From: Chloroflexota bacterium
Lineage (GTDB): Bacteria; Chloroflexota; Anaerolineae; J102
Direction of reading: 5' to 3'
NCBI GenBank assembly: GCA_013152585.1
Contig: JAADGC010000153.1
Coordinates: 1-52,017, forward strand
DNA length: 52,017 bases
A program made the translations under genes and the position numbers. Positions 2,008 through 19,945 of the stretch are shown in pieces. The first letter of the stretch is position 1. Each line of letters begins with the position of its first letter. The notes under the pieces were generated by a model that was not told the origin of the DNA, searched no databases, and saw only the letters and a list, made by a program, of their open reading frames with translations.

Positions 2008-5000
2008 CTACCGCTTGATCACCACGCCCGGCCAGAAGAGCCGATACATCTCCCGCACTTCGGCCTGCACCGGGCCGTAGAGGCGTCCGTCCGAGACGGT
2101 CTCAATCAGATACCAGTAAGTATCCGGACTGAGGAATGAATCTTTCCAGCGATAGTTGGCGCCGTCAGGGTCGGGGGCGGGGATGCGCTGACTGACCGGC
2201 TGGAAGGGGCCGGATGCCTGCAGGGCCCGCCAGACGACGAAGCCATCGGTTTCGCCGCCGGCTGTCGTCGCCCATTGCACCACCACGTTTTTCTCTTGCG
2301 GGGTGGCCGTGAGCTGGCCGGGTTCAGAACTGGGGGGGGGCGTTGCGCTGGTGGGCCGGGTCGGGCCACCGGGATCGACGATACGACCGTTGGCCAGTAA
2401 GTCGCCATCTCCCCGGCCGCCATCGGTCAGGTGCAGGAGGATGGTGTCGCCCCGAAATTCGGCGCCTGTATGGGTATCAAAGGCGAAGTGATACCAGTGT
2501 GGGTCGGGATTGCCGGGCTCGGCTCCGTATTTGAAGTAGTCGTGCATGACCGGGCCGGTGGGGGGCAGGATGAGCTTGATGGTCAGGCTTTGGCCGGGAG
2601 TGAGGCCCTCCAGGGCAAAGGAGAACACCCCCTGCGGGAAATCGATGGGCACGGGCAGGCTTTGGGGCAAGGGGGCGGCCAGGGCACGGGCGTTTTCGAT
2701 GCTGGTGCCGGGGGGTGAAACCACGGTAATGTAGCTGCCATCTACGGCATTGGGCATGGAGGTGACGTTTGCCTGGTCGGCATCGGGGATGCCATCGTGG
2801 TTGCCGTCGCCATTGCCGGGGGCATTGTTTTCGATGTCGCTGCTGATGCCGTCGGCGTCGTCATCCGGGCCGGTGACGAGCAGGGGCCAGCTTTGGATAG
2901 TGGCGCTGGGTTCGTGGCCGCCGGTGGTGGCAAGATAGACGGCTTCCAGAACGAGACCGGCGTCCTGCCCCGCAGGGCCAAGTTGGGTGCGCTGGCCGGA
3001 AAGGGCGAGGGCGGTGAAGGTGAACGTTGCCACCTGTGTTTCTTCGGAGATGCCGGTCGCTGACAGGATGTTGAATTTGATTTGGTCGGGGGCGAAGGTG
3101 GGATTGCAAAAACCGGCGAAGGTTTCATTCCCGGCGCCAATCTGGCAGTTTTGCAGTTGTAAAACGGCGGGATTGTAGTGCAGCAGGAAGGTGGCAGCCG
3201 CCAGGGCCATGCCGGGGCCGGGGGCCACGATCAGCGGTAGGGTGAGACTGTTGCCGGGGGTGATGTAGCCGGGGCCTTCACCCAGGCGTAAGATCAGCTC
3301 GTTGCCGGTGGCCGCGGGAGGCACGATATCGATGCCACCGTCGGCGGTCTGCACGGGCAGAGGATGGCCGCTGGGGTCGGCGAAGGTGGTGGGGCTAAGT
3401 TGGATGTCGCTGGTGTCACCGGGGGTGGCGCTGCTTGCAGCCTGCCAACGGACGGTCGCCAGGGTGAGGTCGCCGTTGACACCGCCAAGTGACACGGCAT
3501 TCAGGCGGATTTCGCCGGGGCCTGCCTGCAAGTTGCAGATACCGGAGCCAAAGGCGCTGTTCTGACTGCAGGCAAGCGGCTGCACGACTTGGGGCTGATA
3601 ATGCAATACGATGCTGATCGCTCCCAGGTTGGTAGCGCCTTCGATGCGAATGGCCGTCTCGATTTGGGCGGAAGCCGGCAGATCGTACTGGCCGCCGTTA
3701 GCGGCGTCGCCCAGCCGCAACAGGGCCACGCCGGGCCCGCTGCCGCTGTCGATGGTGACGCTGCCGGGATGGGTGCGTACGGGCAGGGGGATGGCGGCGG
3801 TGTCGTCAAAGCTGCGCACGGTCAGGGTCAGGGGCGTGCTATCTCCCACAGTAGCCGCGACCGCCGGCGTGAGCAACAGGTCGAACAGGGGCAGGTCACC
3901 GCTGATCCCTTGCGTTGAGATCAGGCTGACGCGCACGTGGTCGCCGTGCAGAGCGCACACACCCCAATCGAGTCGGGCGTCCTGGCGCACCCGGCAGCCG
4001 ACGGCCCTCACGATGGCGGGGTCGTAGCTGAGGTTGAGCGCGGCTGCACCCAGATCGCTCACCTGGCTCATCCACACGGGCACGGTGGTGGTGATGCCCA
4101 TAGACGTGCTGAAAGCGCCGTCGCCCTGGGGCGGGCCCACCCAAAGGTGCGGCGTCTGACCGGTGGGCTGGCCCAGGGTGATGCTACCGGCGGCGGGCAG
4201 GAGATAGAGCGGCTCGCCGCCGGCACCGGTGGCGTGATCGATGACCGGCTCTAACTCGCTGAGGGCGCCGGGGCTGGCGTCGGGGGCGGCCTGGAAGCGG
4301 ATGTCGAAGGCGGGGACGATGCCGTGCAGACCTGACGCCGACACCAGGTTGAGCTTTATCCAGCCCTGATCCGGATCGAAGTTGGGGTTGCAGGTGCCCA
4401 TCAGGGGCGAGGCAATGCGGCACTGACGGGGATGAAGCACGGCGGGGTCGTAGTGCAGGAGCAGGTCGAGGGCGCTGAGCGTGTGAGCGCCCGTAATCGC
4501 CAGGGTGACGGATAGGGCGAGGGTCTCTCCCGGCCGCAGCACATACGGTCCATGGCCGCTCTCTCCGATGCTCACCCTGCCATCTTCTCCGGCAACACCC
4601 CCCACTACATCCACCTGGCTGCCGGCGGTGTCGACGGGCAGGGCTTGGCCTTGGGGCGTGGCGAGCTGGGCGCTGGTGGGCGCGACGTTGCTGTGGCTGC
4701 CCACGGGGCCGTACACCTGCCACGTGATCTGGTAGAGGGGCTGCTCGCCGTTGACACCGGCAGCGGCGAGGGCATTGAATTTGACGGCGTTGGCGGCAAA
4801 GTGCAGGTTGCAATAGCCGCTGCCAAAGGCACTGCCGGGGGCTTTTTCGCAGGCGACCGCGCGCAGCACGGCCGGATCGAACTGGATCACGGCTGATGCC
4901 GTCCCCACGTTGGCGGCGTCGCTGAGCGTGACCGGCAGGGTGATGAGATCGCCCGACCTGAGGGTGTAGGGGACGCTGCGGCCATCGCCCACGCGCAGCA

Positions 5001-5148
5001 CGGCCGCTCCGGCCAGCGGCGCCGCCACACCGGGTTGCAACCCGCTGCTGAACATGAGCAGCAACAGGGCGGTGGTCAGTCCGGCCCAGAAGAGGCGCCG
5101 GAAGGGGTGGGCGGATGTTGAAGGCGCCGCAAGTGGATCAGGCCTCAT
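2008..5148 (-). CDS. Secreted protein with five cohesin-like modules, a choice-of-anchor U-like domain and an FN3-like domain
   Basis: Predicted exported scaffold-like protein of 1046 aa. A signal sequence covers about residues 15-45 (hydrophobic LTTALLLLMF). Five cohesin-like beta-sandwich modules of about 135 aa follow at roughly 49-182, 190-325, 336-467, 474-609 and 617-757. Each has the pattern F/YDPAVL, a Cys, 9-12 residues, then CysAsn (Ala in module 3), then K/R-F/L-N and a Gly-hydrophobic turn. Cys pairs are 100/113, 243/253, 385/398, 527/538 and 668/681. Residues 761-792 are Asp-rich TSP3-like calcium loops (DDDADGISSD), followed by a choice-of-anchor U-like domain (793-925), a Pro-rich linker, an FN3-like domain (943-1035) and the tail RLFWPGVVIKR. 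It is the last gene of the operon, 78 bp after the dockerin gene. No Shine-Dalgarno is obvious before the ATG. Family membership comes from motif reading; binding partners are inferred. Confidence 0.85.
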   Translation of the reverse strand: MRPDPLAAPSTSAHPFRRLFWAGLTTALLLLMFSSGLQPGVAAPLAGAAVLRVGDGRSVPYTLRSGDLITLPVTLSDAANVGTASAVIQFDPAVLRAVACEKAPGSAFGSGYCNLHFAANAVKFNALAAAGVNGEQPLYQITWQVYGPVGSHSNVAPTSAQLATPQGQALPVDTAGSQVDVVGGVAGEDGRVSIGESGHGPYVLRPGETLALSVTLAITGAHTLSALDLLLHYDPAVLHPRQCRIASPLMGTCNPNFDPDQGWIKLNLVSASGLHGIVPAFDIRFQAAPDASPGALSELEPVIDHATGAGGEPLYLLPAAGSITLGQPTGQTPHLWVGPPQGDGAFSTSMGITTTVPVWMSQVSDLGAAALNLSYDPAIVRAVGCRVRQDARLDWGVCALHGDHVRVSLISTQGISGDLPLFDLLLTPAVAATVGDSTPLTLTVRSFDDTAAIPLPVRTHPGSVTIDSGSGPGVALLRLGDAANGGQYDLPASAQIETAIRIEGATNLGAISIVLHYQPQVVQPLACSQNSAFGSGICNLQAGPGEIRLNAVSLGGVNGDLTLATVRWQAASSATPGDTSDIQLSPTTFADPSGHPLPVQTADGGIDIVPPAATGNELILRLGEGPGYITPGNSLTLPLIVAPGPGMALAAATFLLHYNPAVLQLQNCQIGAGNETFAGFCNPTFAPDQIKFNILSATGISEETQVATFTFTALALSGQRTQLGPAGQDAGLVLEAVYLATTGGHEPSATIQSWPLLVTGPDDDADGISSDIENNAPGNGDGNHDGIPDADQANVTSMPNAVDGSYITVVSPPGTSIENARALAAPLPQSLPVPIDFPQGVFSFALEGLTPGQSLTIKLILPPTGPVMHDYFKYGAEPGNPDPHWYHFAFDTHTGAEFRGDTILLHLTDGGRGDGDLLANGRIVDPGGPTRPTSATPPPSSEPGQLTATPQEKNVVVQWATTAGGETDGFVVWRALQASGPFQPVSQRIPAPDPDGANYRWKDSFLSPDTYWYLIETVSDGRLYGPVQAEVREMYRLFWPGVVIKR

Positions 5149-5226: not shown

Positions 5227-6591
5227 TTAGCGCCGTAATTCGGGCAGGTAAAGGCGCGGGACCAGATCGGGGGCGGGGGTTTGTGCTGCGGTGGGGGCGA
5301 CGTCAGCGGCGGCGATAACCTGGGCATGGAAGAGCAGGGGCAGATACAGCCGCTGGCTCTCTTCGGGGATGGGGATGTCACTGGGGGCAGGCGCGCTTTG
5401 CTGCGATGCCTGGAAGCTCCAGAGCAGGGGCAGGTACAGCGGGTTGCTGTCGCCGGGGATGGGAATCAGCTCGGGGGCAGCCAGTTGCCAGGGAAGTCCG
5501 GCGCCCTGGTGGTCGGAGGTGTCGACGATGGCCAGCGAGAGGTTTTGTAACCGGGAATCGTCGCCGAGGGGGTGGTTCATGTGGAAGCTCACGGTTGCCA
5601 GTTCGGTTCCGTCGGAGAGGCCGGTGGTGCTAAGTGCGTTGAAACGCACGACTCCCGGCGCATAGTCCGCATTACAACTGGCCATGTCCAGCGCATCCGC
5701 ACTGGTTTCCTGGCAATCGACGGGCGTAAGCTGTTGCAGGTCGTATACCAGCTCCAGGGTACCGGCGCCGAAAGCTGCCTGTGGATCATCAGCCAGCACC
5801 CGCACGATCACCTGTTCTGTGGCTGCGTCGGCTTCGATCTGCAGGTGCAAGAGCAGCAGCGCCTCGTTGGGCGTGTTTTGCTCCTGGATGGCCGCGGCCG
5901 TGGGATGGTTGGGACACTCGACGCCGCTCATGCCCACATCGCATTGCAGGATGCGCAGGGCGTCGCTGGCGTTGCAGACGCCATCTTCGATGATGTCGCA
6001 CAAGGGCAGGTAGATGGTGCGGGGGCCGGGCGGGAAGCTGGTGACGCCTTCGATCAGGCCCACGTCGTACTTGAGCACCAGGAGGGCATCGCCGGAGTCG
6101 CGGCGACCGCTGGCGTTGACATCGCCCAGGGAATAGGCATCAGGGCCGGAAAGGAAGAGATCGAGGTGATAGGCGCCACCATTGCCGTCGCCGGGCACCA
6201 TGAAGCTGTTGAGCACGACGCCGTTGGCATCGGTAAACATGGCCGGGGCATCGTTGATCTGGAAGGTGATGTTTTCGCCCAGGCGGACGCTACCAGCGTC
6301 GTAGGCGGTGTCGCCGACGTCGTACTGGCGCAGGGGGATGCTGAGCACGTAGCCGTAGTCGGTGCCACTCACGGGGGCGATGACGGCGGTGACCACGCCC
6401 CCGCGCGGCAGCAGGGCTTTGACAGTGCCATCGCTAAGCGGCTGGCCGTCTCGCAGCACCGTGCCGTAGAGGATGAGGTCGGGCAGGGGCAGGGGCGTGT
6501 CGGGGGGGGCCTGCGCCAGCGCCTGCAGCGGGGCCACCAGTACCAGAAGACCGGTGAGAAGGATCAGCCTGAGGGATAGCCTGGGCTTCAT
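5227..6591 (-). CDS. Secreted dockerin-like plus cohesin-like protein with repeated LYLPLL motifs
   Basis: Exported 454-aa protein. I chose the ATG at 6591, which overlaps the stop of the giant gene by four bases (ATGA) and starts a clear signal peptide (LRLILLTGLLVLVAPLQALA). Residues 38-150 form a beta-rich domain. A dockerin-like double motif follows: GDVNASGRRDSGDALLVLKY at 156-175 and DIIEDGVCNASDALRIL at 199-215, the Asp/Asn-rich calcium loop plus helix pattern of type I dockerins; the second loop is less canonical. A cohesin-like module with Cys293/Cys306 spans 244-372. The C-terminus holds an imperfect tandem repeat of about 30 aa, each copy with I-P-I-P then LYLPLL (385-390 and 415-420), and ends in RLYLPELRR. 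Having both dockerin and cohesin-like modules makes an adaptor role plausible (inference). Translational coupling to the giant gene suggests matched synthesis. Confidence 0.85.
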   Translation of the reverse strand: MKPRLSLRLILLTGLLVLVAPLQALAQAPPDTPLPLPDLILYGTVLRDGQPLSDGTVKALLPRGGVVTAVIAPVSGTDYGYVLSIPLRQYDVGDTAYDAGSVRLGENITFQINDAPAMFTDANGVVLNSFMVPGDGNGGAYHLDLFLSGPDAYSLGDVNASGRRDSGDALLVLKYDVGLIEGVTSFPPGPRTIYLPLCDIIEDGVCNASDALRILQCDVGMSGVECPNHPTAAAIQEQNTPNEALLLLHLQIEADAATEQVIVRVLADDPQAAFGAGTLELVYDLQQLTPVDCQETSADALDMASCNADYAPGVVRFNALSTTGLSDGTELATVSFHMNHPLGDDSRLQNLSLAIVDTSDHQGAGLPWQLAAPELIPIPGDSNPLYLPLLWSFQASQQSAPAPSDIPIPEESQRLYLPLLFHAQVIAAADVAPTAAQTPAPDLVPRLYLPELRR

Positions 6592-9500
6592 GGTGCACTC
6601 TCCTCTGTGGATTGCGCCGCCGCAGTTCCGGCGTATGCGTAGGTCTGGAAGTAGATGTAGATGTCGGATACGTCCTCGATAAAGCGTTCGATGCCGATCT
6701 GGGGGTCGGAGAGCAGGGTGGCGCCGGGGATGACCAGCAGCCATTCCGTGTTCCATACCGTGCGCCCGATCAGGCGGGTGTCGGTGTTCAGCTCGTCGGG
6801 CGAGAAGGTATCGGAGTAGGGATAAGCCCGGAAGCGGGTGTAGGGTTTAATTTTGTACATTTCGCCGCTAAGACCGCCCAGACGTGGTGTCCAGTTCGGG
6901 TTCTCCATATCGGCCTGGGTGATGGGATAGGGCACGGGCAGCAGTTGTTCGGTGACGTTCCAGTAGCGCAGGAGGCCGCTGGTATTGCGCGGTCGGCCCA
7001 CATCCTTGCCGGCGGGGAGCAGGTAGACGCGCGGGGTTTGGGCCAAGCGACTGGTATCATAGCCCTGGAACCACACACCCACATTGGCGATCTTGGTGGA
7101 GAACTGGCTGGCGTCGTAGGCGCTGTCGCCAGGCCCGAGCGGGCGAGCGAAGAAGTTTTCGCCCTCAGTGATGGTGGAGGCGATAGGAATGACCAACCCA
7201 GGTTGCGGGCCGTTATCGCCATAGGGCCGCTTGGCTAGGCGGGCGACGTCGTCATTGCTGTAGATATCGGGCGTGTAGTAGCGCATCAGCTCCTGCCGCC
7301 ACTTGGCGTCGGAGTCGTCTCGCAAACGGAAGAGCTCCCGGCGCAATGAGAAGCGGTTGGCCTCGGCTTGCGGGTTGTTGAAGCCCATCTGGCCCTTGAG
7401 TATCTTGAAATTCTCGTTCATCTGCGCCAGGGGTTCGGCCAGACCGCCGGAACCAACGACCGGTTCGAGCGGCAGGGGGCGGAGCCGTCTCAGTTCGCCC
7501 AACGAGCGCAGGCCTATGATCTGGCGCAGGAATTTGTCGCCGTTGGCGGGATCGTCGCCAGAGAGGTTGGTTTCGTAGTCGTAGGCGGCGGCGGTGAGAT
7601 AGGTGTAGGTCTGGGCCATGTCGAATTGCCGGCGGTATTTCTGCAGGGCGTCATTTTGGAAGATGCGGTAGGCCATGTCGTTGTAGCGCTGCTCGGTGAT
7701 CTGCCCGGCCCAGCGTTTGCGCAGGCGGCTCAATTCATTCAGCTTGCGGAAGCCGCGCTGCAGGGTCTGATCATAGTTGCCCTGGGCCGAATTCACACGG
7801 TCCTTGGCCAGGTACACCGCCAGACGCAGTTCCCGTTCCTCCCGTAACAGACCGCCCATTGCCTTGCCGTACTGGGCGAGATCATAATTCGACGAGACTT
7901 CCAGGATGGCCGTTTCGATCCCGGCTTTCGCCGTGTCTTTTACGGCTCCCAGGACATCGACGCCTATGTCCAGGCCAAACACCACATTTGAAGCAATCGT
8001 ACTCAAGGCCGATCCGGACACAGAAAGGGCGCAAACAACGGGAGCGCCAACGTCGTTGGCCAGACCGGCGCTGCGCGGCGGGCATTCAGCCGCGGCATCG
8101 GTAATCGTTTTCGCCGTTTTGCCAAATTGGTTGATGGTTTTCGATATACCCTTGATCACACGGACGGTTTGATCGATGAGATAAACCGCCCATCTTTCGC
8201 TGTGCTTGAGACCACGCATGGCGGCGAGATACTGAGCCTTCTCCTTGATCTTCTTTTGCATACCGTCTATCTTTTCGACCTGGTTCTGGTAGGCCTGAAT
8301 CGCCATCTCGTATTCCACCCGCGCCTCGGTCAATTCTTGGAGGGTGTTCTGGATTTCGCCTGGCGCTTTGCGGGCGCTGTCTTCCGGCCAGGACGCCGGT
8401 TTGAAACGCCCCCGCCCCGCATCCAGACCAATGCCCACCCGGTACTCGATTTCCACTTTATCGCTGTCGCCCTTCTTGAGATTCACGTCGGAGCAGAGGT
8501 CTCCCCAGGTAATGGTGTCGATATAACGCTTGGGGAAATTCCCCAGACATTTGATCGTATTATACTCGAGCGTGAAGGTCGTCGTCTCGACGACACAGTG
8601 GCCGGCGTCCCTGTCCGCATCGCTGCACCGTTTCTGGGCATCGGTGAGTTCATTGCGATCCCAGAGATCGTAGTTGTAGATGTCGGGGCCGTCGTAGCCT
8701 GCCGGATAGGTGCCGTTGACACCGATGTCGGCGTCGTAGGGATAACCGAAGAGCTCGATCAGCTCGTTCATCAGCGCCGTATCTTTTTCGACGATGCTGG
8801 TGACGAAATCGCGGCGGGTGTTTTGCGATTGGCGCTGAGCGATCTTCATCTCGTTGGCATAGTCGAACAAATTGAAGGCGCTACCCAGGTTGACGAGCGT
8901 TCGGTCATAAACCTGCTCGAAGTGGGTCTTACCTCCACCCTCGGCCGTGGTCTTGGTCTTTGCCGGATCCAGATCGAAGAGCACGGCGTTACCCACCAGT
9001 CCTAGCGGGTTCAGGCCGCCGTCGGCCTCGTCCAACTGCTGTTGGATGGCGGCGTACTTGTCGGCGATCTCGCCCAGTTCGGCCACGGTGGTGCGGTCGA
9101 TCTTACGCACATCGCTGTAGCGATTGTCCACGGGCGGTAGGATGGCATTGGCCACGACCCAATCGAGATACGCGCCCTGCCCGGCGCGGCGCGCCCAATC
9201 GGCCACGCCCCAGGCCCGGCGCTGTCCGTCCGAGGTGTCGATGTGGCTGTCCACGTATTCTTGGCTGTGCGGATCCGAGTATTCCTTGCGGTAGGTCAGG
9301 TCCACGATTTCGGCCCCCATCCGCGCCTTGGCGGCAGCAGCAATGGCAAAACGGCGCTCGTCGTAGTAGTCCACCACCACCGGCGCCCCGGCCACGAGGA
9401 TAGGCTCGGCCCGGGGTGACCAGGTGTAGTAAGGATGGCGTAGCAATTGGTAATATTTGCTGATCGCCGTCAGCATCTGGCCCCAGGCGTCGCCGTGCCC

Positions 9501-12500
9501 CTGGGGATAGAGGATGGCTGCGTCTGCCTCGTCCACAAAGCCATCCTGGTTGATGTCCTTGATGTTGTAGTTGGTGACGTAGGCTATCTCTCCGTCGCCG
9601 TTGGTGAAATTCCAGGTGAGACGATTATAAGTTGGTGCTGCCGCCACCCCACCCAGGGTCTCATCCCGACCGCGCAACAGGGCCAGCTCCTCGTCGATCA
9701 GGCCAAAGCTGTCTGGCCGGAACTGGTTCATGAAGGCGAAGATGGCGGGGGCGCGAGAGGCGAAACCACTGTTCGAGTCCAGGCCTACGGTCGGGTCCCG
9801 GGCGTCCATATAGGCGTCGTTGCCCAGCAGCATGTACAGATCGGCGATGCGCGAGGTGACATTGAGCAGGGCGGCGTTGGCCCCCTGGTCGTTGACGCCG
9901 GAGTCGATGGAGAGCTTGCGGCCGCGGTCGAGTATCGTTTCGTAGGCCTCGATCAGGCCCATGTTGTTGAGCGTCTCGGGGTCGTTGCTGAGGGCGACCG
10001 GCCCCTCGTAGCGGTGACCGGCCTGACGGATCATGTCGACGGTGGTGTTGACCGGGGCACTGATGAAGTCGTCCACGCGGGCGTCGAAGGGATTGAGGGC
10101 CGAGGTCACGCGCTTGATCCAGCCCGGCGCGAACTGCGCCCGCACCTCCGAGGGCTTGGCCGAGGGATCACCGGCAAAGGCGCTCCAGCGGTACTGGTTG
10201 CCGCAGATGGGGTAGCCCTTGTAGCGCATGATCAGCCAGTTATCGCTGAGGGTGGTGGGATTGGCGCCCTCGATGGTGATCTCCGGGCCGATGGCGCTGG
10301 CTCCCGGCTCCACCTTCGTCCAACTCCGCCAGGGATAGTTGGGCGGGATGGCCGTGGGCGAGACGCCGGTGTCGTCCACCGCGGCGATGTACCACTGGAA
10401 TTCGAAGTCGTCGGGTCGGCCGCCGAAGTCGCCGGTGTGGCGCAAGGTCAGCTTTTCGTCGAAGAGGTTGTCCGATTTGATCACCAGCAGGTTGCCGCGA
10501 TAGGTGCTGTCCTCGCCCAAATGGTTCTTGGTGCAGCCCACTTTGATCACCTGCAGCGAGACCGGCAGTCCGCCCAGGCTGGAATCATTGTTGTAGGCCA
10601 CGGTGATGTAGCCGGCGCCGGCGGCGTTACCGGCGGTGAGGGCTTTGCCCTTGCCCAGACCTTCGTAGGGTTCGGAAACGCCATCGTTGTTGACGTCCTG
10701 CACGCCGATCAAGAAGGCCTGGTCGGGTTGTCCGTCGCGATAGGTGGCTGCCGCATGGTTACATATTTGCGGGTCAGATGGGTCCGCTGGCCCCTGGTTG
10801 GCGGCTGGCTCAGGATCGCCGGCATAGAGTTCACCGGCGGCGTTGCGGCACAAATCCAACTGACGGGGATTCAAGGTCTGCCAGTAAAGAGCCTGGACCG
10901 CAGCTTTGTATTTGTCGCAGTCAGTGCCGCCGGGACACAAAGCCCACAGACGCTCTTTGTCAGAGGTGGACATAACATTGAGCAACAGCAAGGGGTCGCC
11001 TTTGATGTATTCCTTGGATGTGCCGTCGTAGTAACCGCGGAAGATCAGGTCGCCGGCGCCGTCATCGAATAGAACGCGAGAGCGTAGCGAGAAGGGCAGC
11101 GCCAGATCGGGATCATTCTTGTTGCCGACGATGGCCTGGCCGCCGCCGAAGAGCAGACGCTCGCTCTTGAGGTCGGTGGGCAGGCTCCAGTTGTCGTTGA
11201 TCTTCAGGTCGAGATGCACTCGCACCTCTCCTATGGGGTCGATCAGTTGTGCCAGCGATTGTTGCACCTCGGGGCCTTGCATGATGATTCTTTGCGTGCT
11301 GCTATCCCAGGCGCCGGGCGCCCAATCGTCGTAGATGCGCGAGACCGCCAGTTGGTTGGCTACGCCGGAAATGCCGCTCTTGGCCCGTTCGTAGACGGTC
11401 TCGCCCACGCTGAGCAGCGGCGGCAGGTCGGGCCAGTCGGCATGGTAGGCCACGGGTAGGACTTGGGTGTTACTCCCTTCCTCGGGGAAGTCGGCATAGG
11501 GCACGGCACCGTTGCTGAGCTGGTCCATCCAGGGTACACATCGACCCACCCGATCGTCTATGGACAGGACGTTGTCGTTTGTATCCACCAGACCCAGGTT
11601 GCGGGCGTGGGCGTCCGTTAGGTAGAAGCCGGGTTGCAAGGGATAGAAGTACAGCACCTGCATGTCGCCGGCCGCCCGTGCCCACAACATGCCCTTCCAA
11701 TCCTTCCAGAAGGGACGCGCCGTGACATCCGCCGCCCGCGTTTGTTCGCAGGGCTGGATGTCGAGCAGCCCGCGTAGGGGCGTGGGGGCGTAGACCGGAT
11801 TGCCGGCGTCGATGTTGTAGCTCAGGTCTTCATAGCTGGGGCCGAATAGGGCGATATTGCTGAATCCCACTTCTGTCGTGTCCCCGTCTATGTTGAAAGC
11901 CGGGGTCGCCGCAAAGGTCAGGTCCGAAAGCCGCAGATCACCGCTGAGGCCGTGTTTGGCCCGCGCTTGCAGCTCGATGCTCAGTTGGCCGGCTTGCTCG
12001 ATGCGACAGCCGCTGGTCGGCAAGTCAGTAAGGGTGCCGGGGCTGGCCGCATCATCTATGCTCACGGGCGTCGTGGCCGTGAGATCGGCAAAGACACCAT
12101 TTGCCGCCGTCACCGTCACAGTGTAATCGCCGTTGGCGCCGTAGACATGGCTGACTTCGGCCCCGGCCACGCGCGAAGTGCCGTCGCCGAAGTCCCAGAA
12201 ATACTGGGCATCGGTACCAGCGGCCAGGCTGGCGCGCAGATGCACCACGTGGAAGGGCCACTGCGGGCTGTCGCTGGTCACTTGCAGACCGTAGAGCTGC
12301 TCGACGAATTTCAGGCGATTGGTGGTGCAGTTAGTGGGCGTGAGCTTACTGGCATCGTAGGTCACCTTCAGAGAGAGCGAGTGTAAATTGCGAGCGCCCA
12401 GCGCTTCCAGCGGCAGGGTCACTTCGCCGCCTGGCGTGAGGTTACCGTCGTCCACCCGCAGGATGACATTGGGAGGCGACGCCGCGGCCTGAGCCGTGAT

Positions 12501-15500
12501 GGCAGCGGCGTTCAGGGTGACGATGCCGGAGTCTGATGTAAAGTTGGGAATGGGGTTGGCGGGCCGGGTGAGCATGACCTTGTAAATACCGATTTTAGTC
12601 AGGCCGTCCTCGAGGGGATCGTGGTATTTGAGCAGGGCGTAGGATTGTCCCCCGGGCTCGCTAGGGTCCCGATCCTGAAGGTCGATGCGCAGGGCGTACA
12701 GCGCCGGGGCCGGGTTGCCCAGGTTGGAGGCCGCCAGCAGGGCGTGCTCCCAGTTGGGGCTATAGCCCGGCAGGCTTGTGTCCGGCTGGTGGTAAATGGT
12801 GAGATCTCTGAAGGCGTCGGTCTCCAACACCGCCTGGTTGGCGATCTCCGAGCCAAGCTCGCTGGCGATCACGATCTCGGGTGGATCAGCAGGCCAATCG
12901 CAGCGATAGCCCACGGTTTTCACCGGCCAGGCCACGTTACGGCCATCGGGCCGGTACCAGGCGATGCGTAGATCATGATCGCCGGTGACCGCATCCGTGT
13001 TGAGGAAGGGCGTCGGCGCCGTGTTGAGGACGGGGATGATCGGCCCCTCGCGGGTTTCCTGGTTGTAGGCGGGAGGAATAAGGTTGTCCACCGTGTTCTG
13101 GGCAAGAGCCAATTCGGCCGTCTCATGCACGCCGTCGAAAGCCTCGCCTGTCAGGATCTGGCCGGCCTTGCCTTCGGGATCTTCGTGGCCGGGAAGCTCA
13201 CCGGCGGCGTCGCCGAAGGGCCGGTAACGTAGCTCACGACCGATCTCACACTGCGTGCGCTCTGCTCGCATATCCCGCACGCCCGGGGTGTTCCAATCTA
13301 CCGTCTTCACCACTTCCACCTTCAGGGTAGCATTGGTCTGGTTGCCCTTGATCCATTGTAATACCGAGTAGGAATCACCGGCGTCGGGCAGCGTCGCGCG
13401 ACGGAAGACGCCGTTGACCAACAACTGCCCGGCCTCCGCATCGGCGGGGTTGAGACCTTCGAAGGCGCGGGCTCCGGCAATCTGGAAACCATCGCTGATC
13501 TCTTGGTGCATCAATGCAACCCCTGCGCCCGACACATGAATCTGGGGAGCATCCGGCCATTCGATCACGCCCACCTGGCCAATTTCGACCAGCGTCGCCG
13601 GATCGGGGTCGGTATCCCAAGACACGGTCACCAGTTCTTCCGGCTCCAGCGTGTCATCACCATCATTGGGCGAGGGTCGCAGGGCATAATCCTGAGATGC
13701 GGCTGCACTCCAGGCGTGGTAGGATTGTACATCCGGTCCGCTCTCGGCCCCGCCCACATTCCAGCGCGCCGGTTGCGTGATAATGGCCGAGGGGGGGTGC
13801 AAGACGGGCTGACCCACGATCCAGGGTTGGAACTCGTAGGAACCCATGTCACAGGCATATTCGCCGCCGGTGCCCCGTTGCGGCAGGAGTACCCCGCGCT
13901 GATCCACAGTGCGGGGTCGCGCCTGCACAGTGATACGACCGTAGGCGATCTGGGCGCGACCGGCATTGTCATAGACGCGATAAGCATAGCTACCGTCTTC
14001 GCTGAATTGCCGCGGGAGCGACCTTCCCCCTGCGGGGACATCGATCATCTCGACGTTCGCCTCGCCGTCATCAAAAGCCACCGTGACATGCGCCTGATAT
14101 GCAAAAATCACGATGTCTCCGGCAGCGATGGTGACCTCAGGGTTTGCCCCGCCGACGAGGAAAATGGTGTGGGTGGTGGCTGCTTCACAGGTTTCGGGCG
14201 GGATGCGATCCATGGCCGAGCTGCCCGGCTTCAGGGCATGGGAGTAGGTGAAGCCGCTGACTGTATTCTGAGCGAAATCGATGGCATTGTTATCTTGCAG
14301 GGGGCCCAACCTGGCGTCCAGCTCAGGCATAATCGCCGGCCGCAGGTCGGTGTCGTCAGTCAGGCCGCAGGAGGCGTCATCCACCAGATTGTATTGCCCC
14401 GAGCTGATATGGGCTGTGGCGGAAGCCAACACGCAGTCATCCCCGGCGGAACCGACGCTTTTGACAATAATGGAATGGGCGATAGTGGTGGCGCTGTTTT
14501 CGCCGGCATACACGGCGTGCGCTTGCGGCGTGAATGGCAGAGGATTGACCGTCAGCACGATCGTCAGGTCATTAATCTGATCGGAGCGCAGCGTCACCAG
14601 GCCTGTGCTGCAGATCAATGGCGCCGACAATCCCATCCCCAGAGGATCCACTTTCACAGCGTCGGTATTACAGGCGCTGGCCGGTTCCACCAGCAGACGA
14701 TAGGCATCACCGGTACGATTCTGGAATTGCACGATGTCGCCGGAGGTCACGGTGAGGGCAGTGGGAACGAACACGGGTCCCGTGTCAATCGCCACCACAT
14801 ATTGATCGGCTAGGCGCGCCGCCTGATTCTCGGCAATCGTACTTGCCTGCAAGAGGGCCGTGGCGGCTATGGGGCTGGTGGGCAGAGCAGCATTATAGAT
14901 GCCGCCACCGTAGAATTCGGCCTGATTGCCGGATAGGGTGCTGCGTTGCAACGTCAGTTGGCCGGCATTGTAGATGGCCCCACCCCGCGCTTCCTGCCCA
15001 CTCACAACAGCGCCCCCCTCATCCAACTGATTGACGGCGGCGTTTTCGGACAGCGTCGAACGCACGACCGTCAGGCGCCCGCGATTGCTAATGCCGCCGC
15101 CCTGGCGACTGAGGCCGTGTTGAATGGTTAGATTCTCTATGGTGACTGAGACATCACCAGTGACGGCAATGGTGCCGGTGGCTGTGATGGGATAGTAGGC
15201 CTGCACGGTGAGCACGGTGCCCGAGAGTCCGCTTGCCCGGGCGGGATCCAGCAAACGATGCTGTTCCGGAATGGTACGCTCCGAAGCCTGCAAGATGGCG
15301 CGCACGTCCACGGGCTGATCGGGGCTGAGGGTGGTGACATCGATGCCGGCGTGTTGCAGGGTGGCGTCTTTGTAGACGATGAAGTTGCCGGTGTAGGCCC
15401 CGGCCTCGATGGCCACGATGTCACCGGCCATGGCGGTGTTCAGCGCTTTTTGCAGATCATTGAATCGCCCGTTGTCCGGGTCTTCGTCACAGTTCTCGCA

Positions 15501-18500
15501 CACGGTTAGGGTTTGGGGGCCGTATTCGATGGCGCCGATGTCACAGCGGGCGCCACCGCCACCGGGCATGTCGAAGGGGCGCAGCTTGCCCCGCTGGTCC
15601 GTTTCCACCGCACAGTCAGCCTCCGGGGGGCCGCTCTCGACGGCGGGGCTGGTTGCCGCCAGATCAAGCGTGAGTGTGGGGCCGCCGTTATCTCGCAAGG
15701 GCCCAAGCTGGGGATCACCAGTGCTATCGTGCCCGGCCAGGGTTACGAAGCAATTGCCGCCATTGGTCAGATTGTAGTCCAGCGAGGTCACGGCATCGCC
15801 CGTACACTGGCTGGCTGCCTCCTGGCTGCTGAGGATGCTTGCGCCTACACGCACCGATCCGCCACCGACGTTTAAGTCGTGCAGTGAGCCGCCTTCGTTA
15901 TCGGCCAACGTCGCCTCGGTCACCGTCGCCGTGCCGCCGGGGGCATTGAAAATGCCGCCACCACTTTGGGCCGTATTGCTGTAGATCGTGCTGTTGATGA
16001 CGTTGAGCGAACCGCTGTTGTAAACGGCGCCGCCATCATTCGCCTCGCTGTGATAGATGGTCACGCCCTGCAACGTCAGATCGCCGGCATTGTTGATGCC
16101 GCCGCCCTGATCGGCGTCGCCGTGGCGGATGTTCAAGTTCTTGATGGTGACGATTGCCCCCACGGTGATAGAAAATACGCTGCCCGGCGCCTGATCGCCG
16201 TTCGCTTCGGCCAGCGTCGCCTGCACCACACCCATGTGCGTGCCTGGTGTCGCTTCCACGAGCAACGGCCCGCGAATGGTGACGCTCTTGGACACGGTCA
16301 CGGTTTCGGTGACAACGCCGGAGACGACGATGGTGTCGCCGGTTTGGGCGTCCTGCAGGGCGGTGCTGATGGCGTCATAAGTGCAGCGATCCAGATGTTG
16401 GGCGATGGGCAGCAAGGGCGGGCCACAGACCAATAAAGTGGCTGCGCCTAACTCGACCGCCCCGGCGTCGCACTTCCACTCGCTCTTGTCGATGATCACA
16501 CCTTCCTGACGGATGCCCCAGGCCGGGCGGGTTTTGCCCCGCTGGTCCTGCTTGTGTACACCCAAATTCTGCAAGTCGCTTTCACAGACTCCCCGGGGTA
16601 TGATATCCACCAGCGAGGTGTTCGCTTTGCCCGCGGGTTTGTGCGTCAGCGTGGGGCCATCATTGTCGGCCAGGGGCTCCAGGGCAATCGTGGCGTTTTC
16701 CTGGTCGTCGGCAGTGGCATTTTGCAACTGGCAGGAACTGTCGCTGATACGATTGTAGCCCCCCACAGATGTGAGCGAGTCGCCGCTGCAGTTGGCGGTC
16801 ACCGTTCCCTGGGGGTTAGCAACGATGGTTGCGAACAAATTGATAGTACCACCGCGATTCCAGATATTGGCCCCCGCCACTGAAGCACTATTTTGGGCAA
16901 GCGTGGAAAAGTGCAGGTCTGCTGATGCGTTATCTATGACAATACCCCCGCCTCTGTTCGCCTCGTTGCCTGAAATTGTGCTATTGATGATGGTGATCGG
17001 GCCGTTTTTGCCGTAAAGCCCGCCGCCATACCTGGAAGCGCTGTTCTTAGAGAGGGTGCTATTTATCATTCTGAGACTGGCATGAGTATTGTAGATGCCA
17101 CCACCCTCACGCAGAGAGATGTTTTGGCTTACGGTGACGCCATCAAGCGTTAGATTTCCCAGATAGTTGATGATGCCACCACCAGCGGTACCCGCGGCGC
17201 TGGCGCCACCGGTGAGGGTCACGCCTCGTATGAGGACGGTGTAAGCCCCTTTGACGCGGATCACGCGATCGATTCCTCGGGCATCGATCACCGTCGTATT
17301 GGCGCCGGCGCCGATAAGGGAGAGGTTACTGACAATATCGAGGTCGCCTGCGGTGTTGGAATAGTCCGGTGGATAGACCTGCACTTCGGCCAGCGACAGA
17401 GGCTCTGTGCCCGTGAGTTGCACGCGCACGTAGCGTCCCCAAAGCGCGCCCGGGGTGCCTGCTGAGGGTGTGAAGTTAGCTGTCGTCAAAGAGAAAGTAG
17501 TTCCGGCCGCTCCACTGTGGTAAGCGCTCCACACCCCGGGTTGATTTTTGGTTGCATCGGGGTCATCGGAGGTAAAGGCAGTGGCCGAGACAAAGACGTA
17601 GAAATTGCTCAGGCGCGTGCTACAACAATCGCTGCGGTTCCATAGCTTGATCTCGTTGATCCCTCGCCCCTCGCCCAAGTCCACCTGCCACCAGGCATAG
17701 TGCTCAGAATTTGTGTGCGTCACCGAACCATGGATCCAATTGCCGTTGCTGTCGCCATCCACGGCCCGGCTGGCGCTACCCCCGGCATACGTGCTGGATT
17801 GGGAGGCCGGCTTGTTCAGCGCCATATTCCCAGCGACATTAGCGATATCAAGGTTGTAGGCGCCGGCGGGCACGGTGATGGTGTAATAGCCGCTGTTGCC
17901 CAGATTACAGCCGCCAAAGGGGGAGTTCGTGTTGACGGATTGCACCGCCTCACGCAGGGAGCAGGTGGCATCGTTGGTATTAAACTCATCGAGCTCGGTA
18001 TTGACGGTGAGCACGGGAACGAATCCCGCTTCGTAGGCGCCGATGTCGCACTTGGCCGTGCCGTCATTGTCACCATCCTGCGGGCGCTCGACCCCGCGTT
18101 GGTCGCTGGCGAGGCCGGGGCAACTGCCAGCATCGATAGCCGGGCTGCCGGGCAGCAGGGCATGGGTTTGAGTAGGTCCACCGTTGTCTTTGAGGCTGCC
18201 CAGCTTGGGATCCGTATTCACTAGATCGCTGGCCTGGTTGAAGCCACAGTCATTGCGGTTTTCCAGGTTGTGGCCCTCGGAATTAATAGTTGGCCCCCAG
18301 TTTGCACAGTTGGGATACCGTGTAGCCAGATTGTTGGCAATAATGGTATTGCTGACCGTTAGCCCATCCGCCGCTTCCCCATTGAGTAATCCACCAACCT
18401 CTACAGTGGCTCGATTGTCGATCACAGTGCTGCTGCGCAGCGTAAGCGCCCCCCCGTTCTCGATGCCACCGCCGTTGTTAGCAGAGTTGCCACTTACAGT

Positions 18501-19889
18501 GCTGTTACTCAGCGTAAGTGTTCCCCGATTATCGATGCCGCCGCCGAAGTGCTCTGAGTTGTTGCTGTAGATGGTACTATCGCTGACAGTCATCGTGCCA
18601 TTTCTGTTGTTGATGCCGCCACCCTCGGTATAACCGCTCCCTATGCTGCTGCCGCCACTACCGCCGGGGCCACGACTGCCGAATTGACCGCCGCTGCCGC
18701 CGTGGGCTGTACAACCGTCTACATATGTTGTACCTGAGGAACCCCACGAACCGTAGCCACCTCTGGGGCCCTTAGAACCTGTGGCACCGCCTGCGCCACT
18801 GCTAACCCTGTTGTAGCTGACGGTACTGTTGCTTAACGTCACAGCGCCGACGTTATAGAGTCCCCCGCCCCGGCCTATCCCGCCGTAGCCCCCATATCCC
18901 CCCGGTCCACCTTGGCCGCCTGCACCTGCTGCGCCACCATCGCCGCCATCTCCGCAGGCGGCCCCGAAAAACCACAGGTAGGCGCCATTACCGCCATTGC
19001 CACCCCGGCCGCCATTGCCACCCCGGCCGCCATTGCCGCCCCGGCCACCAACGCCACCCATGGTGCTGTTATTTGTTATACTGCTGCTGCGCACGGTTAA
19101 CGTGCCGGCGTTGTAAATGCCGCCGCCCAGCCCTTGGCCACCTGCTCCCCCACTACTGCCAACGTTACCAGTGCTGCCATTACTGCCATTACTGCCATCG
19201 TGACCGTCCGAGCATGAGCTGAAGCCACAACTGCCATTACTACCATTGCCGCCATCGTTCCCCTTGCCACCGGTGCCACCCGTGCCGCCAGTGCTGCCCT
19301 GACCGCCGACGGCTGTGCTGCTGCTTACCGTCGAGTTGAGTAGCGTCAGGTTGCCTGCGTTGTAAATGCCCCCGCCTCGGCCAGCACTGCCGTTGGCTCC
19401 CACCACCCGCCCGTTTTGAATGATCAAATACTCCAGCACCACCGTGTGTCCGGCCGGGATATTCACCACGCGGTCGTTGTTGCTGCCATCGAGAATCGTG
19501 TCGCCACTCTCACTGCCGCGTAATGTCAGGTTTTTGGCGATGGTGAGATGTTCGGCATAGGTGCCGGCGGCAATGTAAATCGTGTCGCCGTTGCTGGCCT
19601 TGCCCATAGCCGCGGCGATAGTGCGACAAGGCGCGGCGGCGCTCTGGCAGCTATTGCCATCGTTGCCGGTGGTGGCCACAAACCAGGCGGTGGCGCTGGG
19701 CAGAGAATTGCGGTGGGCAAGCTCCGGCATCAGCAAAGCGTTGCCGGGCGCGGTGAAGCTCGCCATGCTTGCTGGCGCCACAGCGGGCGTCTGGCTCATG
19801 GCCCCCACCCGATTGCCTGCTCCCAGCAGGGCGATCATCAGCGCCAATCCTATGAAAACCATCAACCGCAGGATATGTCGTGTCTTCAT
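6588..19889 (-). CDS. Giant secreted beta-helix/CSLREA protein with nested discoidin, cupredoxin-like and PKD-in-cohesin domains
   Basis: A 4433-aa exported protein. The start used (19889) gives a clean signal peptide (MKTRHILRLMVFIGLALMIA) with AAGGA upstream; an ATG at 19949 overlaps the upstream stop (ATGA) and would add 20 residues. Rough layout: a parallel beta-helix with long Gly-rich loops (60-600), choice-of-anchor Q unit 1 (to about 620), a CSLREA motif near 643 with an F5/8C discoidin domain inserted (687-844), further beta-helix and choice-of-anchor Q units (850-1990) holding two cupredoxin-like insertions (1692-1790 and 1904-1991), and a cohesin-like domain (about 2470-2680) with a PKD domain (WDFGDGTS) nested in it. 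The remaining about 1750 residues are unrecognised apart from an EF-hand/dockerin-like loop (DINQDGFVDEADA, about 3441) and a coiled coil (3843-3890). No protease, glycosidase or LPxTG is seen. It is probably a stalk or adhesin at the cell surface (inference). Confidence 0.88.
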   Translation of the reverse strand: MKTRHILRLMVFIGLALMIALLGAGNRVGAMSQTPAVAPASMASFTAPGNALLMPELAHRNSLPSATAWFVATTGNDGNSCQSAAAPCRTIAAAMGKASNGDTIYIAAGTYAEHLTIAKNLTLRGSESGDTILDGSNNDRVVNIPAGHTVVLEYLIIQNGRVVGANGSAGRGGGIYNAGNLTLLNSTVSSSTAVGGQGSTGGTGGTGGKGNDGGNGSNGSCGFSSCSDGHDGSNGSNGSTGNVGSSGGAGGQGLGGGIYNAGTLTVRSSSITNNSTMGGVGGRGGNGGRGGNGGRGGNGGNGAYLWFFGAACGDGGDGGAAGAGGQGGPGGYGGYGGIGRGGGLYNVGAVTLSNSTVSYNRVSSGAGGATGSKGPRGGYGSWGSSGTTYVDGCTAHGGSGGQFGSRGPGGSGGSSIGSGYTEGGGINNRNGTMTVSDSTIYSNNSEHFGGGIDNRGTLTLSNSTVSGNSANNGGGIENGGALTLRSSTVIDNRATVEVGGLLNGEAADGLTVSNTIIANNLATRYPNCANWGPTINSEGHNLENRNDCGFNQASDLVNTDPKLGSLKDNGGPTQTHALLPGSPAIDAGSCPGLASDQRGVERPQDGDNDGTAKCDIGAYEAGFVPVLTVNTELDEFNTNDATCSLREAVQSVNTNSPFGGCNLGNSGYYTITVPAGAYNLDIANVAGNMALNKPASQSSTYAGGSASRAVDGDSNGNWIHGSVTHTNSEHYAWWQVDLGEGRGINEIKLWNRSDCCSTRLSNFYVFVSATAFTSDDPDATKNQPGVWSAYHSGAAGTTFSLTTANFTPSAGTPGALWGRYVRVQLTGTEPLSLAEVQVYPPDYSNTAGDLDIVSNLSLIGAGANTTVIDARGIDRVIRVKGAYTVLIRGVTLTGGASAAGTAGGGIINYLGNLTLDGVTVSQNISLREGGGIYNTHASLRMINSTLSKNSASRYGGGLYGKNGPITIINSTISGNEANRGGGIVIDNASADLHFSTLAQNSASVAGANIWNRGGTINLFATIVANPQGTVTANCSGDSLTSVGGYNRISDSSCQLQNATADDQENATIALEPLADNDGPTLTHKPAGKANTSLVDIIPRGVCESDLQNLGVHKQDQRGKTRPAWGIRQEGVIIDKSEWKCDAGAVELGAATLLVCGPPLLPIAQHLDRCTYDAISTALQDAQTGDTIVVSGVVTETVTVSKSVTIRGPLLVEATPGTHMGVVQATLAEANGDQAPGSVFSITVGAIVTIKNLNIRHGDADQGGGINNAGDLTLQGVTIYHSEANDGGAVYNSGSLNVINSTIYSNTAQSGGGIFNAPGGTATVTEATLADNEGGSLHDLNVGGGSVRVGASILSSQEAASQCTGDAVTSLDYNLTNGGNCFVTLAGHDSTGDPQLGPLRDNGGPTLTLDLAATSPAVESGPPEADCAVETDQRGKLRPFDMPGGGGARCDIGAIEYGPQTLTVCENCDEDPDNGRFNDLQKALNTAMAGDIVAIEAGAYTGNFIVYKDATLQHAGIDVTTLSPDQPVDVRAILQASERTIPEQHRLLDPARASGLSGTVLTVQAYYPITATGTIAVTGDVSVTIENLTIQHGLSRQGGGISNRGRLTVVRSTLSENAAVNQLDEGGAVVSGQEARGGAIYNAGQLTLQRSTLSGNQAEFYGGGIYNAALPTSPIAATALLQASTIAENQAARLADQYVVAIDTGPVFVPTALTVTSGDIVQFQNRTGDAYRLLVEPASACNTDAVKVDPLGMGLSAPLICSTGLVTLRSDQINDLTIVLTVNPLPFTPQAHAVYAGENSATTIAHSIIVKSVGSAGDDCVLASATAHISSGQYNLVDDASCGLTDDTDLRPAIMPELDARLGPLQDNNAIDFAQNTVSGFTYSHALKPGSSAMDRIPPETCEAATTHTIFLVGGANPEVTIAAGDIVIFAYQAHVTVAFDDGEANVEMIDVPAGGRSLPRQFSEDGSYAYRVYDNAGRAQIAYGRITVQARPRTVDQRGVLLPQRGTGGEYACDMGSYEFQPWIVGQPVLHPPSAIITQPARWNVGGAESGPDVQSYHAWSAAASQDYALRPSPNDGDDTLEPEELVTVSWDTDPDPATLVEIGQVGVIEWPDAPQIHVSGAGVALMHQEISDGFQIAGARAFEGLNPADAEAGQLLVNGVFRRATLPDAGDSYSVLQWIKGNQTNATLKVEVVKTVDWNTPGVRDMRAERTQCEIGRELRYRPFGDAAGELPGHEDPEGKAGQILTGEAFDGVHETAELALAQNTVDNLIPPAYNQETREGPIIPVLNTAPTPFLNTDAVTGDHDLRIAWYRPDGRNVAWPVKTVGYRCDWPADPPEIVIASELGSEIANQAVLETDAFRDLTIYHQPDTSLPGYSPNWEHALLAASNLGNPAPALYALRIDLQDRDPSEPGGQSYALLKYHDPLEDGLTKIGIYKVMLTRPANPIPNFTSDSGIVTLNAAAITAQAAASPPNVILRVDDGNLTPGGEVTLPLEALGARNLHSLSLKVTYDASKLTPTNCTTNRLKFVEQLYGLQVTSDSPQWPFHVVHLRASLAAGTDAQYFWDFGDGTSRVAGAEVSHVYGANGDYTVTVTAANGVFADLTATTPVSIDDAASPGTLTDLPTSGCRIEQAGQLSIELQARAKHGLSGDLRLSDLTFAATPAFNIDGDTTEVGFSNIALFGPSYEDLSYNIDAGNPVYAPTPLRGLLDIQPCEQTRAADVTARPFWKDWKGMLWARAAGDMQVLYFYPLQPGFYLTDAHARNLGLVDTNDNVLSIDDRVGRCVPWMDQLSNGAVPYADFPEEGSNTQVLPVAYHADWPDLPPLLSVGETVYERAKSGISGVANQLAVSRIYDDWAPGAWDSSTQRIIMQGPEVQQSLAQLIDPIGEVRVHLDLKINDNWSLPTDLKSERLLFGGGQAIVGNKNDPDLALPFSLRSRVLFDDGAGDLIFRGYYDGTSKEYIKGDPLLLLNVMSTSDKERLWALCPGGTDCDKYKAAVQALYWQTLNPRQLDLCRNAAGELYAGDPEPAANQGPADPSDPQICNHAAATYRDGQPDQAFLIGVQDVNNDGVSEPYEGLGKGKALTAGNAAGAGYITVAYNNDSSLGGLPVSLQVIKVGCTKNHLGEDSTYRGNLLVIKSDNLFDEKLTLRHTGDFGGRPDDFEFQWYIAAVDDTGVSPTAIPPNYPWRSWTKVEPGASAIGPEITIEGANPTTLSDNWLIMRYKGYPICGNQYRWSAFAGDPSAKPSEVRAQFAPGWIKRVTSALNPFDARVDDFISAPVNTTVDMIRQAGHRYEGPVALSNDPETLNNMGLIEAYETILDRGRKLSIDSGVNDQGANAALLNVTSRIADLYMLLGNDAYMDARDPTVGLDSNSGFASRAPAIFAFMNQFRPDSFGLIDEELALLRGRDETLGGVAAAPTYNRLTWNFTNGDGEIAYVTNYNIKDINQDGFVDEADAAILYPQGHGDAWGQMLTAISKYYQLLRHPYYTWSPRAEPILVAGAPVVVDYYDERRFAIAAAAKARMGAEIVDLTYRKEYSDPHSQEYVDSHIDTSDGQRRAWGVADWARRAGQGAYLDWVVANAILPPVDNRYSDVRKIDRTTVAELGEIADKYAAIQQQLDEADGGLNPLGLVGNAVLFDLDPAKTKTTAEGGGKTHFEQVYDRTLVNLGSAFNLFDYANEMKIAQRQSQNTRRDFVTSIVEKDTALMNELIELFGYPYDADIGVNGTYPAGYDGPDIYNYDLWDRNELTDAQKRCSDADRDAGHCVVETTTFTLEYNTIKCLGNFPKRYIDTITWGDLCSDVNLKKGDSDKVEIEYRVGIGLDAGRGRFKPASWPEDSARKAPGEIQNTLQELTEARVEYEMAIQAYQNQVEKIDGMQKKIKEKAQYLAAMRGLKHSERWAVYLIDQTVRVIKGISKTINQFGKTAKTITDAAAECPPRSAGLANDVGAPVVCALSVSGSALSTIASNVVFGLDIGVDVLGAVKDTAKAGIETAILEVSSNYDLAQYGKAMGGLLREERELRLAVYLAKDRVNSAQGNYDQTLQRGFRKLNELSRLRKRWAGQITEQRYNDMAYRIFQNDALQKYRRQFDMAQTYTYLTAAAYDYETNLSGDDPANGDKFLRQIIGLRSLGELRRLRPLPLEPVVGSGGLAEPLAQMNENFKILKGQMGFNNPQAEANRFSLRRELFRLRDDSDAKWRQELMRYYTPDIYSNDDVARLAKRPYGDNGPQPGLVIPIASTITEGENFFARPLGPGDSAYDASQFSTKIANVGVWFQGYDTSRLAQTPRVYLLPAGKDVGRPRNTSGLLRYWNVTEQLLPVPYPITQADMENPNWTPRLGGLSGEMYKIKPYTRFRAYPYSDTFSPDELNTDTRLIGRTVWNTEWLLVIPGATLLSDPQIGIERFIEDVSDIYIYFQTYAYAGTAAAQSTEESAP
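18991..19044. repeat. 18-bp tandem repeat, three copies, in the giant gene
   Basis: Copies of CCGCCATTGCCACCCCGG sit at 18991-19008, 19009-19026 (identical) and 19027-19044 (one change). On the coding strand each encodes the hexapeptide unit of a GGRGGN-type glycine-rich loop inside the first beta-helix. The repeat length keeps frame, so copy-number change would lengthen or shorten the loop without breaking the protein. Confidence 0.9.
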
Positions 19890-19945
19890 CTTATTATTCC
19901 TTGCCCTCACAGCGTGATATCGATCAGGGGTGTGCAAATGTCTCA

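What the first reader, a model, noticed from the sequence alone, without database searches (positions are those of the whole stretch)
12007..12329. PKD domain nested inside a cohesin-like module of the giant protein
In the other modules the two Cys are 9-12 residues apart. In the giant the first (TPTNC, codon near 12328) and the second (GCRIEQ, codon near 12007) are separated by about 107 residues, and the gap encodes a PKD-like domain (WDFGDGTS, then VSHVYGANGDYTVTV). The end of the module (KHGLSGDLRLSDLTF) then resumes. This is a domain inserted at the cysteine loop, not a tandem array.
Basis: partly seen in the sequence, partly recalled or inferred. Interest (0 to 1): 0.7.

Follow-up and report, generated by a model that had tools for sequence, protein, structure and literature searches.

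The report
PKD domain nested in split cohesin module
In a very large secreted bacterial protein, one small binding-type (cohesin-like) module is split in two by a complete second domain inserted between its two cysteines; this insertion is conserved in relatives from four bacterial families, so it is a stable design and not an error.

Summary
In the 4453-aa giant (6588..19949, minus strand) Cys2541 (12329-12327) and Cys2648 (12008-12006) are 106 residues apart. The gap holds a full PKD domain (Pfam PF00801, E=1e-12), and after it the second half of a cohesin-like module resumes.

Each half alone matches its own half of the window's uninterrupted modules: N-half to profile columns 2-56 (score 61.8), C-half to 72-129 (36.1), against shuffle maxima of 19-20. 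The PKD does not match. AlphaFold2 with the window's own modules packs both halves into one cohesin fold (PDB cohesins, Z 16, 136 of 143 residues, 2.2 A). With PKD relatives, the insert folds as an independent PKD domain.

Seven nested modules from six genomes in four families keep both cysteines 105-110 residues apart with the PKD between. No uninterrupted orthologue and no other nested case was found.

So this is a discontinuous cohesin-fold module with a PKD in its beta4-beta5 loop, probably clamped by a disulfide, within a conserved, apparently exported operon of cohesin- and dockerin-bearing proteins. Disulfide, binding partner and function are inferred. New variant of known kinds.

The parts
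6588..19949 (-). Giant protein P0001, 4453 aa: signal-like N-terminus, beta-helix / choice-of-anchor Q regions, CSLREA, F5/8 type C, split cohesin-like module with PKD, long unannotated C-terminal half
   Evidence: translation; Pfam; NCBIfam (CSLREA below its cut-off)
12315..12485 (-). N-terminal half of the cohesin-like module (residues 2489-2545)
   Evidence: hhalign to window modules cols 2-56, score 61.8; AF2 pLDDT 80-88 over residues 11-50 of the model
12327..12329 (-). Cys2541, first cysteine of the pair
   Evidence: invariant in 7 of 7 nested modules
12048..12314 (-). Inserted PKD domain with short entry linker (residues 2546-2634); confidently modelled core about 2560-2635
   Evidence: PF00801 E=1e-12; AF2 pLDDT 90+ with PKD relatives; Foldseek top PDB hits are PKD domains
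12009..12047 (-). Return linker ASPGTLTDLPTSG (residues 2635-2647)
   Evidence: similar length in the orthologues
12006..12008 (-). Cys2648, second cysteine of the pair
   Evidence: invariant in 7 of 7 nested modules
11751..12008 (-). C-terminal half of the cohesin-like module (residues 2648-2733), ending at the last predicted strand GLLDI
   Evidence: hhalign cols 72-129, score 36.1; AF2 pLDDT 81-85 over residues 181-220 of the model
2008..5148 (-). P0002, five uninterrupted cohesin-like modules, choice-of-anchor U domain
   Evidence: PF00963 90.2 bits; NF041766; C-C spacing
5227..6591 (-). P0003, dockerin-like repeat plus one cohesin-like module; likely start ATG at 6591-6589, overlapping the giant's stop by four bases
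   Evidence: Dockerin_1; HMM of window modules 133.9 bits; start inferred by eye
19946..22633 (-). P0004, apparently exported protein with SdrD_B-like domain; its stop overlaps the giant's ATG by four bases
22638..23618 (-). P0005, one uninterrupted cohesin-like module

Best explanation
The giant carries one discontinuous cohesin-fold module. A complete PKD (Ig-like) domain was inserted, most likely once in a common ancestor, into the loop between strands 4 and 5, exactly between the two cysteines that the sibling modules share. The two halves still pack together, and the cysteine pair most likely forms a disulfide that pins the entry and exit of the inserted domain, so that the PKD stands out sideways as an appendage on a short entry linker (about 6 residues) and a longer return linker (about 13 residues). 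The protein belongs to an apparently exported five-gene operon whose other products carry uninterrupted cohesin-like modules and a dockerin. The most likely role is a non-cellulosomal surface or matrix assembly in which the PKD acts as a spacer or extra adhesive face beside the dockerin-binding sheet. Shown: nested order, homology of both halves, autonomous PKD, conservation, gene neighbourhood. Inferred: disulfide, single origin, orientation, dockerin binding, export, function. The confidence given refers to the nested architecture; the functional role is nearer 0.4.
For: Half-by-half profile matches with shuffle and reversal controls. With the PKD removed, prob 98.4 and score 87.6 over 116 columns. 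Plain HMM finds the two complementary halves in order in 6 of 7 giants. AF2 model with window modules: 49 of the 50 listed PDB matches are cohesins or cohesin-like modules, best Z 16.3, 136 aligned of 143, 2.2 A, model range 3-244, which needs both halves. PKD folds alone at pLDDT 90+ and matches PKD crystal structures. Seven nested modules from six genomes of four families, both Cys invariant, spacing 105-110. 32 of 32 non-redundant uninterrupted sibling modules of this subtype have a Cys pair 8-14 apart. Gene neighbourhood shared in part with G008, G049, G368, G405 and G203. Dockerins in the same genome.
Against: The nested module is below the Pfam Cohesin cut-off (15.5 against 24.1 bits, N-half only). 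The first AF2 run was guided by an alignment to uninterrupted modules (no orthologues could be used), and its PKD part was poor. The second run, without cohesin rows, left the flanks unfolded (pLDDT 28-43), so no single model shows both parts well. The C-half match of the single window sequence by plain HMM is weak (1.5 bits), and in G405 it is not complementary. The HMM used to count cysteine pairs was itself built from Cys-bearing modules. No coordinates were available to measure the Cys-Cys distance.
Confidence: 0.88

Rival explanations
1. Three consecutive units: a degenerate half cohesin, a PKD, and an unrelated beta-rich segment; no nesting.
For: Pfam sees only the N-half; the single-sequence HMM score of the C-half is weak; AF2 without cohesin rows does not fold the flanks.
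Against: The C-half profile alone hits the complementary cohesin columns at 36.1 against a shuffle maximum of 20.2. The model built with the window modules needs both halves for 136 aligned residues at 2.2 A. The second Cys and the KHGxSGxLxL tail are invariant in all seven.
Confidence: 0.06
2. Nested, but the split module has lost dockerin binding and is now only a structural carrier that presents the PKD.
For: The insert sits next to strand 5, which from general knowledge of type I cohesins belongs to the dockerin-binding sheet 8-3-6-5; the giant's module has diverged from the siblings (20-28% identity).
Against: Nothing tested here separates it from the main explanation, of which it is a variant; the fold is retained.
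Confidence: 0.4
3. Assembly or frameshift artefact that placed a PKD inside a module.
For: The genome is a draft in 251 contigs.
Against: Open frame throughout; same architecture in six other sequences, from five other genomes; same GC and GC3 in insert and flanks.
Confidence: 0.01

Closest known systems
Cohesin domain (Pfam PF00963), including non-cellulosomal cohesins such as the Archaeoglobus fulgidus one (PDB 2xdh)
   Same: Predicted fold (Z 15.6 to 2xdh, Z 16 to type I cohesins); sibling modules in P0002 pass Pfam; the neighbouring gene encodes a dockerin.
   Different: Split by a whole domain between strands 4 and 5; carries a conserved cysteine pair; below the Pfam cut-off on its own. 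No partner shown.
PKD domain (Pfam PF00801), as in clostridial collagenases and an archaeal surface-layer protein (PDB 2y72, 1l0q)
   Same: WDFGDG core, Pfam score, predicted fold; same subtype as the tandem PKDs of the same class (39-43% identity).
   Different: Elsewhere in the class the PKDs inspected lie end to end or beside other domains; here one lies inside another domain.

Membership tests
Cohesin (PF00963) | Sequence above the curated Pfam score | tested here: not met
   15.5 bits against 24.1, N-half only; PKD-free concatenation 15.6
Cohesin (PF00963) | Homology of both halves to accepted cohesin-like modules | tested here: met
   hhalign N-half 61.8, C-half 36.1, full 87.6, shuffles at most 20.8
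Cohesin (PF00963) | Nine-strand jelly-roll cohesin fold | tested here: met
   AF2 model, Z 16.3 to 5nrk_A, 136 residues, 2.2 A; model guided by cohesin-like rows
Cohesin (PF00963) | Contiguous module of about 140 residues | tested here: not met
   106 residues between the cysteines, PKD inserted; hence filed as a variant, 'cohesin-fold module'
Cohesin (PF00963) | Binds a dockerin | not testable with these tools
   dockerins exist in the genome; binding cannot be computed here
PKD (PF00801) | Sequence above the curated Pfam score | tested here: met
   48.1 bits against 23.5
PKD (PF00801) | Autonomous Ig-like PKD fold | tested here: met
   pLDDT 90+ in residues 91-140 of the second model; best Foldseek hits 4tn9, 1l0q, 4jgu

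The most novel reading that the evidence does not exclude
A cohesin whose disulfide-closed beta4-beta5 loop serves as a port for a whole extra domain, so that one module both binds a dockerin and presents a second, sideways adhesive domain, giving branched instead of linear surface scaffolds.
Probability: 0.2. Interest if true: 0.6.

Novelty: new variant of a known kind. Interest (0 to 1): 0.42.

Why it matters
Cohesins and PKDs are normally beads on a string. A naturally conserved insertion shows a tolerated site in the cohesin fold, which is useful both for understanding how giant surface proteins branch and for protein engineering with cohesin-dockerin pairs. It also warns that domain tables report only the PKD here and miss the split cohesin.

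Tried and rejected
Genome-contig scan with the region found only one PKD-bearing Bacteroidetes contig, no orthologue. Viral scan with the single PKD found nothing. Mixed alignments of half-modules, or of PKD rows plus modules, were misaligned by MAFFT and not used. The second structure job used an alignment (A7) in which MAFFT displaced the first strands of the PKD rows away from the PKD (seen, after submission); its PKD core is still confident, but the run is less clean than planned. Typing slip: the first five residues of the query are not from the window; all matches start at query residue 6 or later, so nothing depends on them. Candidates for other nested cases (G345, G348, G260, G362, G324) proved to be tandem PKDs or PKDs followed by other domains. 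Eight literature searches on cohesin, dockerin, PKD and nesting gave no report of this arrangement in the titles and abstracts listed; no paper was read in full and the library lacks most subscription journals, so absence is weak evidence.

Full report
OBSERVATION. The giant ORF runs 19949 to 6588 on the minus strand, 4453 aa. In the window's uninterrupted modules the same two cysteines are 9-12 apart. Pfam finds a PKD in the gap at E=1e-12 and no cohesin in the giant at whole-protein level. In the isolated region only the N-half of the Cohesin model gives a sub-threshold hit.

HOMOLOGY OF THE HALVES. I aligned nine uninterrupted modules from the window and its genome and seven nested modules (the giant plus six orthologous sequences), and compared profiles with hhalign. 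N-half: columns 2-56, prob 97.5, score 61.8. C-half alone: columns 72-129, prob 85.5, score 36.1. PKD: prob 0.2. PKD removed: prob 98.4, score 87.6. Column shuffles (200 each) never reached the observed values for the halves or the whole (maxima 19.0, 20.2, 20.8), and reversed profiles scored 13-16. The C-half therefore matches the part of the module that the N-half lacks. A plain HMM of the uninterrupted modules gives the same picture without profile-profile methods: in 6 of 7 sequences it reports an N-piece before and a complementary C-piece after the PKD. The C-pieces are individually weak (1.5 to 9.3 bits), so the weight lies in their recurrence and position.

STRUCTURE. AF2 with only the window's own modules as alignment gave confident cohesin flanks (pLDDT 80-88 and 81-85) and a poor PKD. 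Against the PDB the best matches are cohesins (Z 16.3, 136 of 143 residues, 2.2 A, model range 3-244); 49 of the 50 listed entries are cohesins or cohesin-like modules. Foldseek agrees. As neither half alone has 136 residues, both halves take part. The alignment given to AF2 may have steered this result, so the profile test of the C-half alone is the more independent evidence. A second run with PKD relatives from viral contigs gave a confident PKD core (pLDDT 90+ at 91-140) whose best matches are PKD crystal structures, but left the flanks unfolded. The two runs are complementary, and no single run shows everything.

CONSERVATION. The giant has orthologues in G008 (73% identity in the region), G049, G368 (two copies), G245 and G405; with the window's genome these are six genomes in four families of the class. 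All seven nested modules keep both cysteines, the PKD between them, spacing 105-110, an entry of six residues before the [FM][VI]E motif, and the tail KHGxSGxLxL. G203 has a partial orthologue whose frame starts downstream of the module. A profile of the nested module run over 396 genomes of the class and 400 of the phylum found no further nested case and no uninterrupted version; other hits centred on the PKD. GC and GC3 of the insert equal those of the flanks, which together with the orthologues argues against a recent acquisition.

CYSTEINES. In 32 non-redundant uninterrupted modules from the window, its genome and the orthologous loci, every one has a cysteine pair 8-14 apart at this place (counted with overlapping loci removed; the HMM was built from Cys-bearing modules). 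Two further modules on contig C85, of a different subtype, lack it (sequence, HMM hit). A disulfide is the obvious reading but was not tested. If it forms, it closes the base of the inserted domain.

SURROUNDINGS. P0005, P0004, the giant, P0003 and P0002 follow each other on the minus strand; P0005/P0004 are 4 bases apart, and P0004/giant and giant/P0003 appear joined by ATGA overlaps, so they are probably one operon. P0003 has a dockerin and a cohesin-like module, P0002 five modules and a choice-of-anchor U domain. Relatives of P0003 follow the giant in G008, G049, G368, G405 and G203, relatives of P0002 in G008, G049, G368 and G405, and relatives of P0004 and P0005 precede it in G405.

MECHANISM. 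Shown: nested order, two-half homology, independent PKD, conservation across families. Inferred: insertion into the beta4-beta5 loop of an ancestral module, disulfide at the base, sideways projection with the longer return linker bridging the distance between the PKD's ends (general knowledge: PKD termini lie at opposite poles), secretion (signal-like N-terminus seen by eye), and a part in a non-cellulosomal cohesin-dockerin surface assembly. Whether the split module still binds a dockerin is open.

NOVELTY. Both domain kinds are well known, and so is domain insertion in general. I found no report of a PKD inside a cohesin, in a limited library and without reading full papers. I file it as a new variant of a known kind. 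The confidence of 0.88 refers to the nested architecture; the functional role is nearer 0.4.

Noticed in passing
L033 (G008:C135), about protein residues 2210-2545 of the orthologous giant: The G008 orthologue has a second large insertion of about 335 aa, an FG-GAP repeat region, probably a propeller (PF13517, E=9e-40), at a point where the window's giant has only about 4 residues (after 2819). The family tolerates whole-domain insertions.
   Followed up: partly
G368 contigs C258 and C699: G368 carries two copies of the giant, both with the nested module.
   Followed up: no
window 6588..6591 and 19946..19949: Four-base ATGA overlaps appear to join P0004, the giant and P0003, suggesting a translationally coupled operon.
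   Followed up: no
G000:C215:1000-5000 (L077): Another protein of the same genome combines two Cys-pair cohesin-like modules with a dockerin that passes the Pfam cut-off, a candidate partner.
   Followed up: partly
window 9447..11072 + and other long plus-strand frames opposite the giant: Long antisense open frames over the giant, as expected for GC-rich coding DNA (GC 0.61, GC3 0.74); no sign that they are genes.
   Followed up: no
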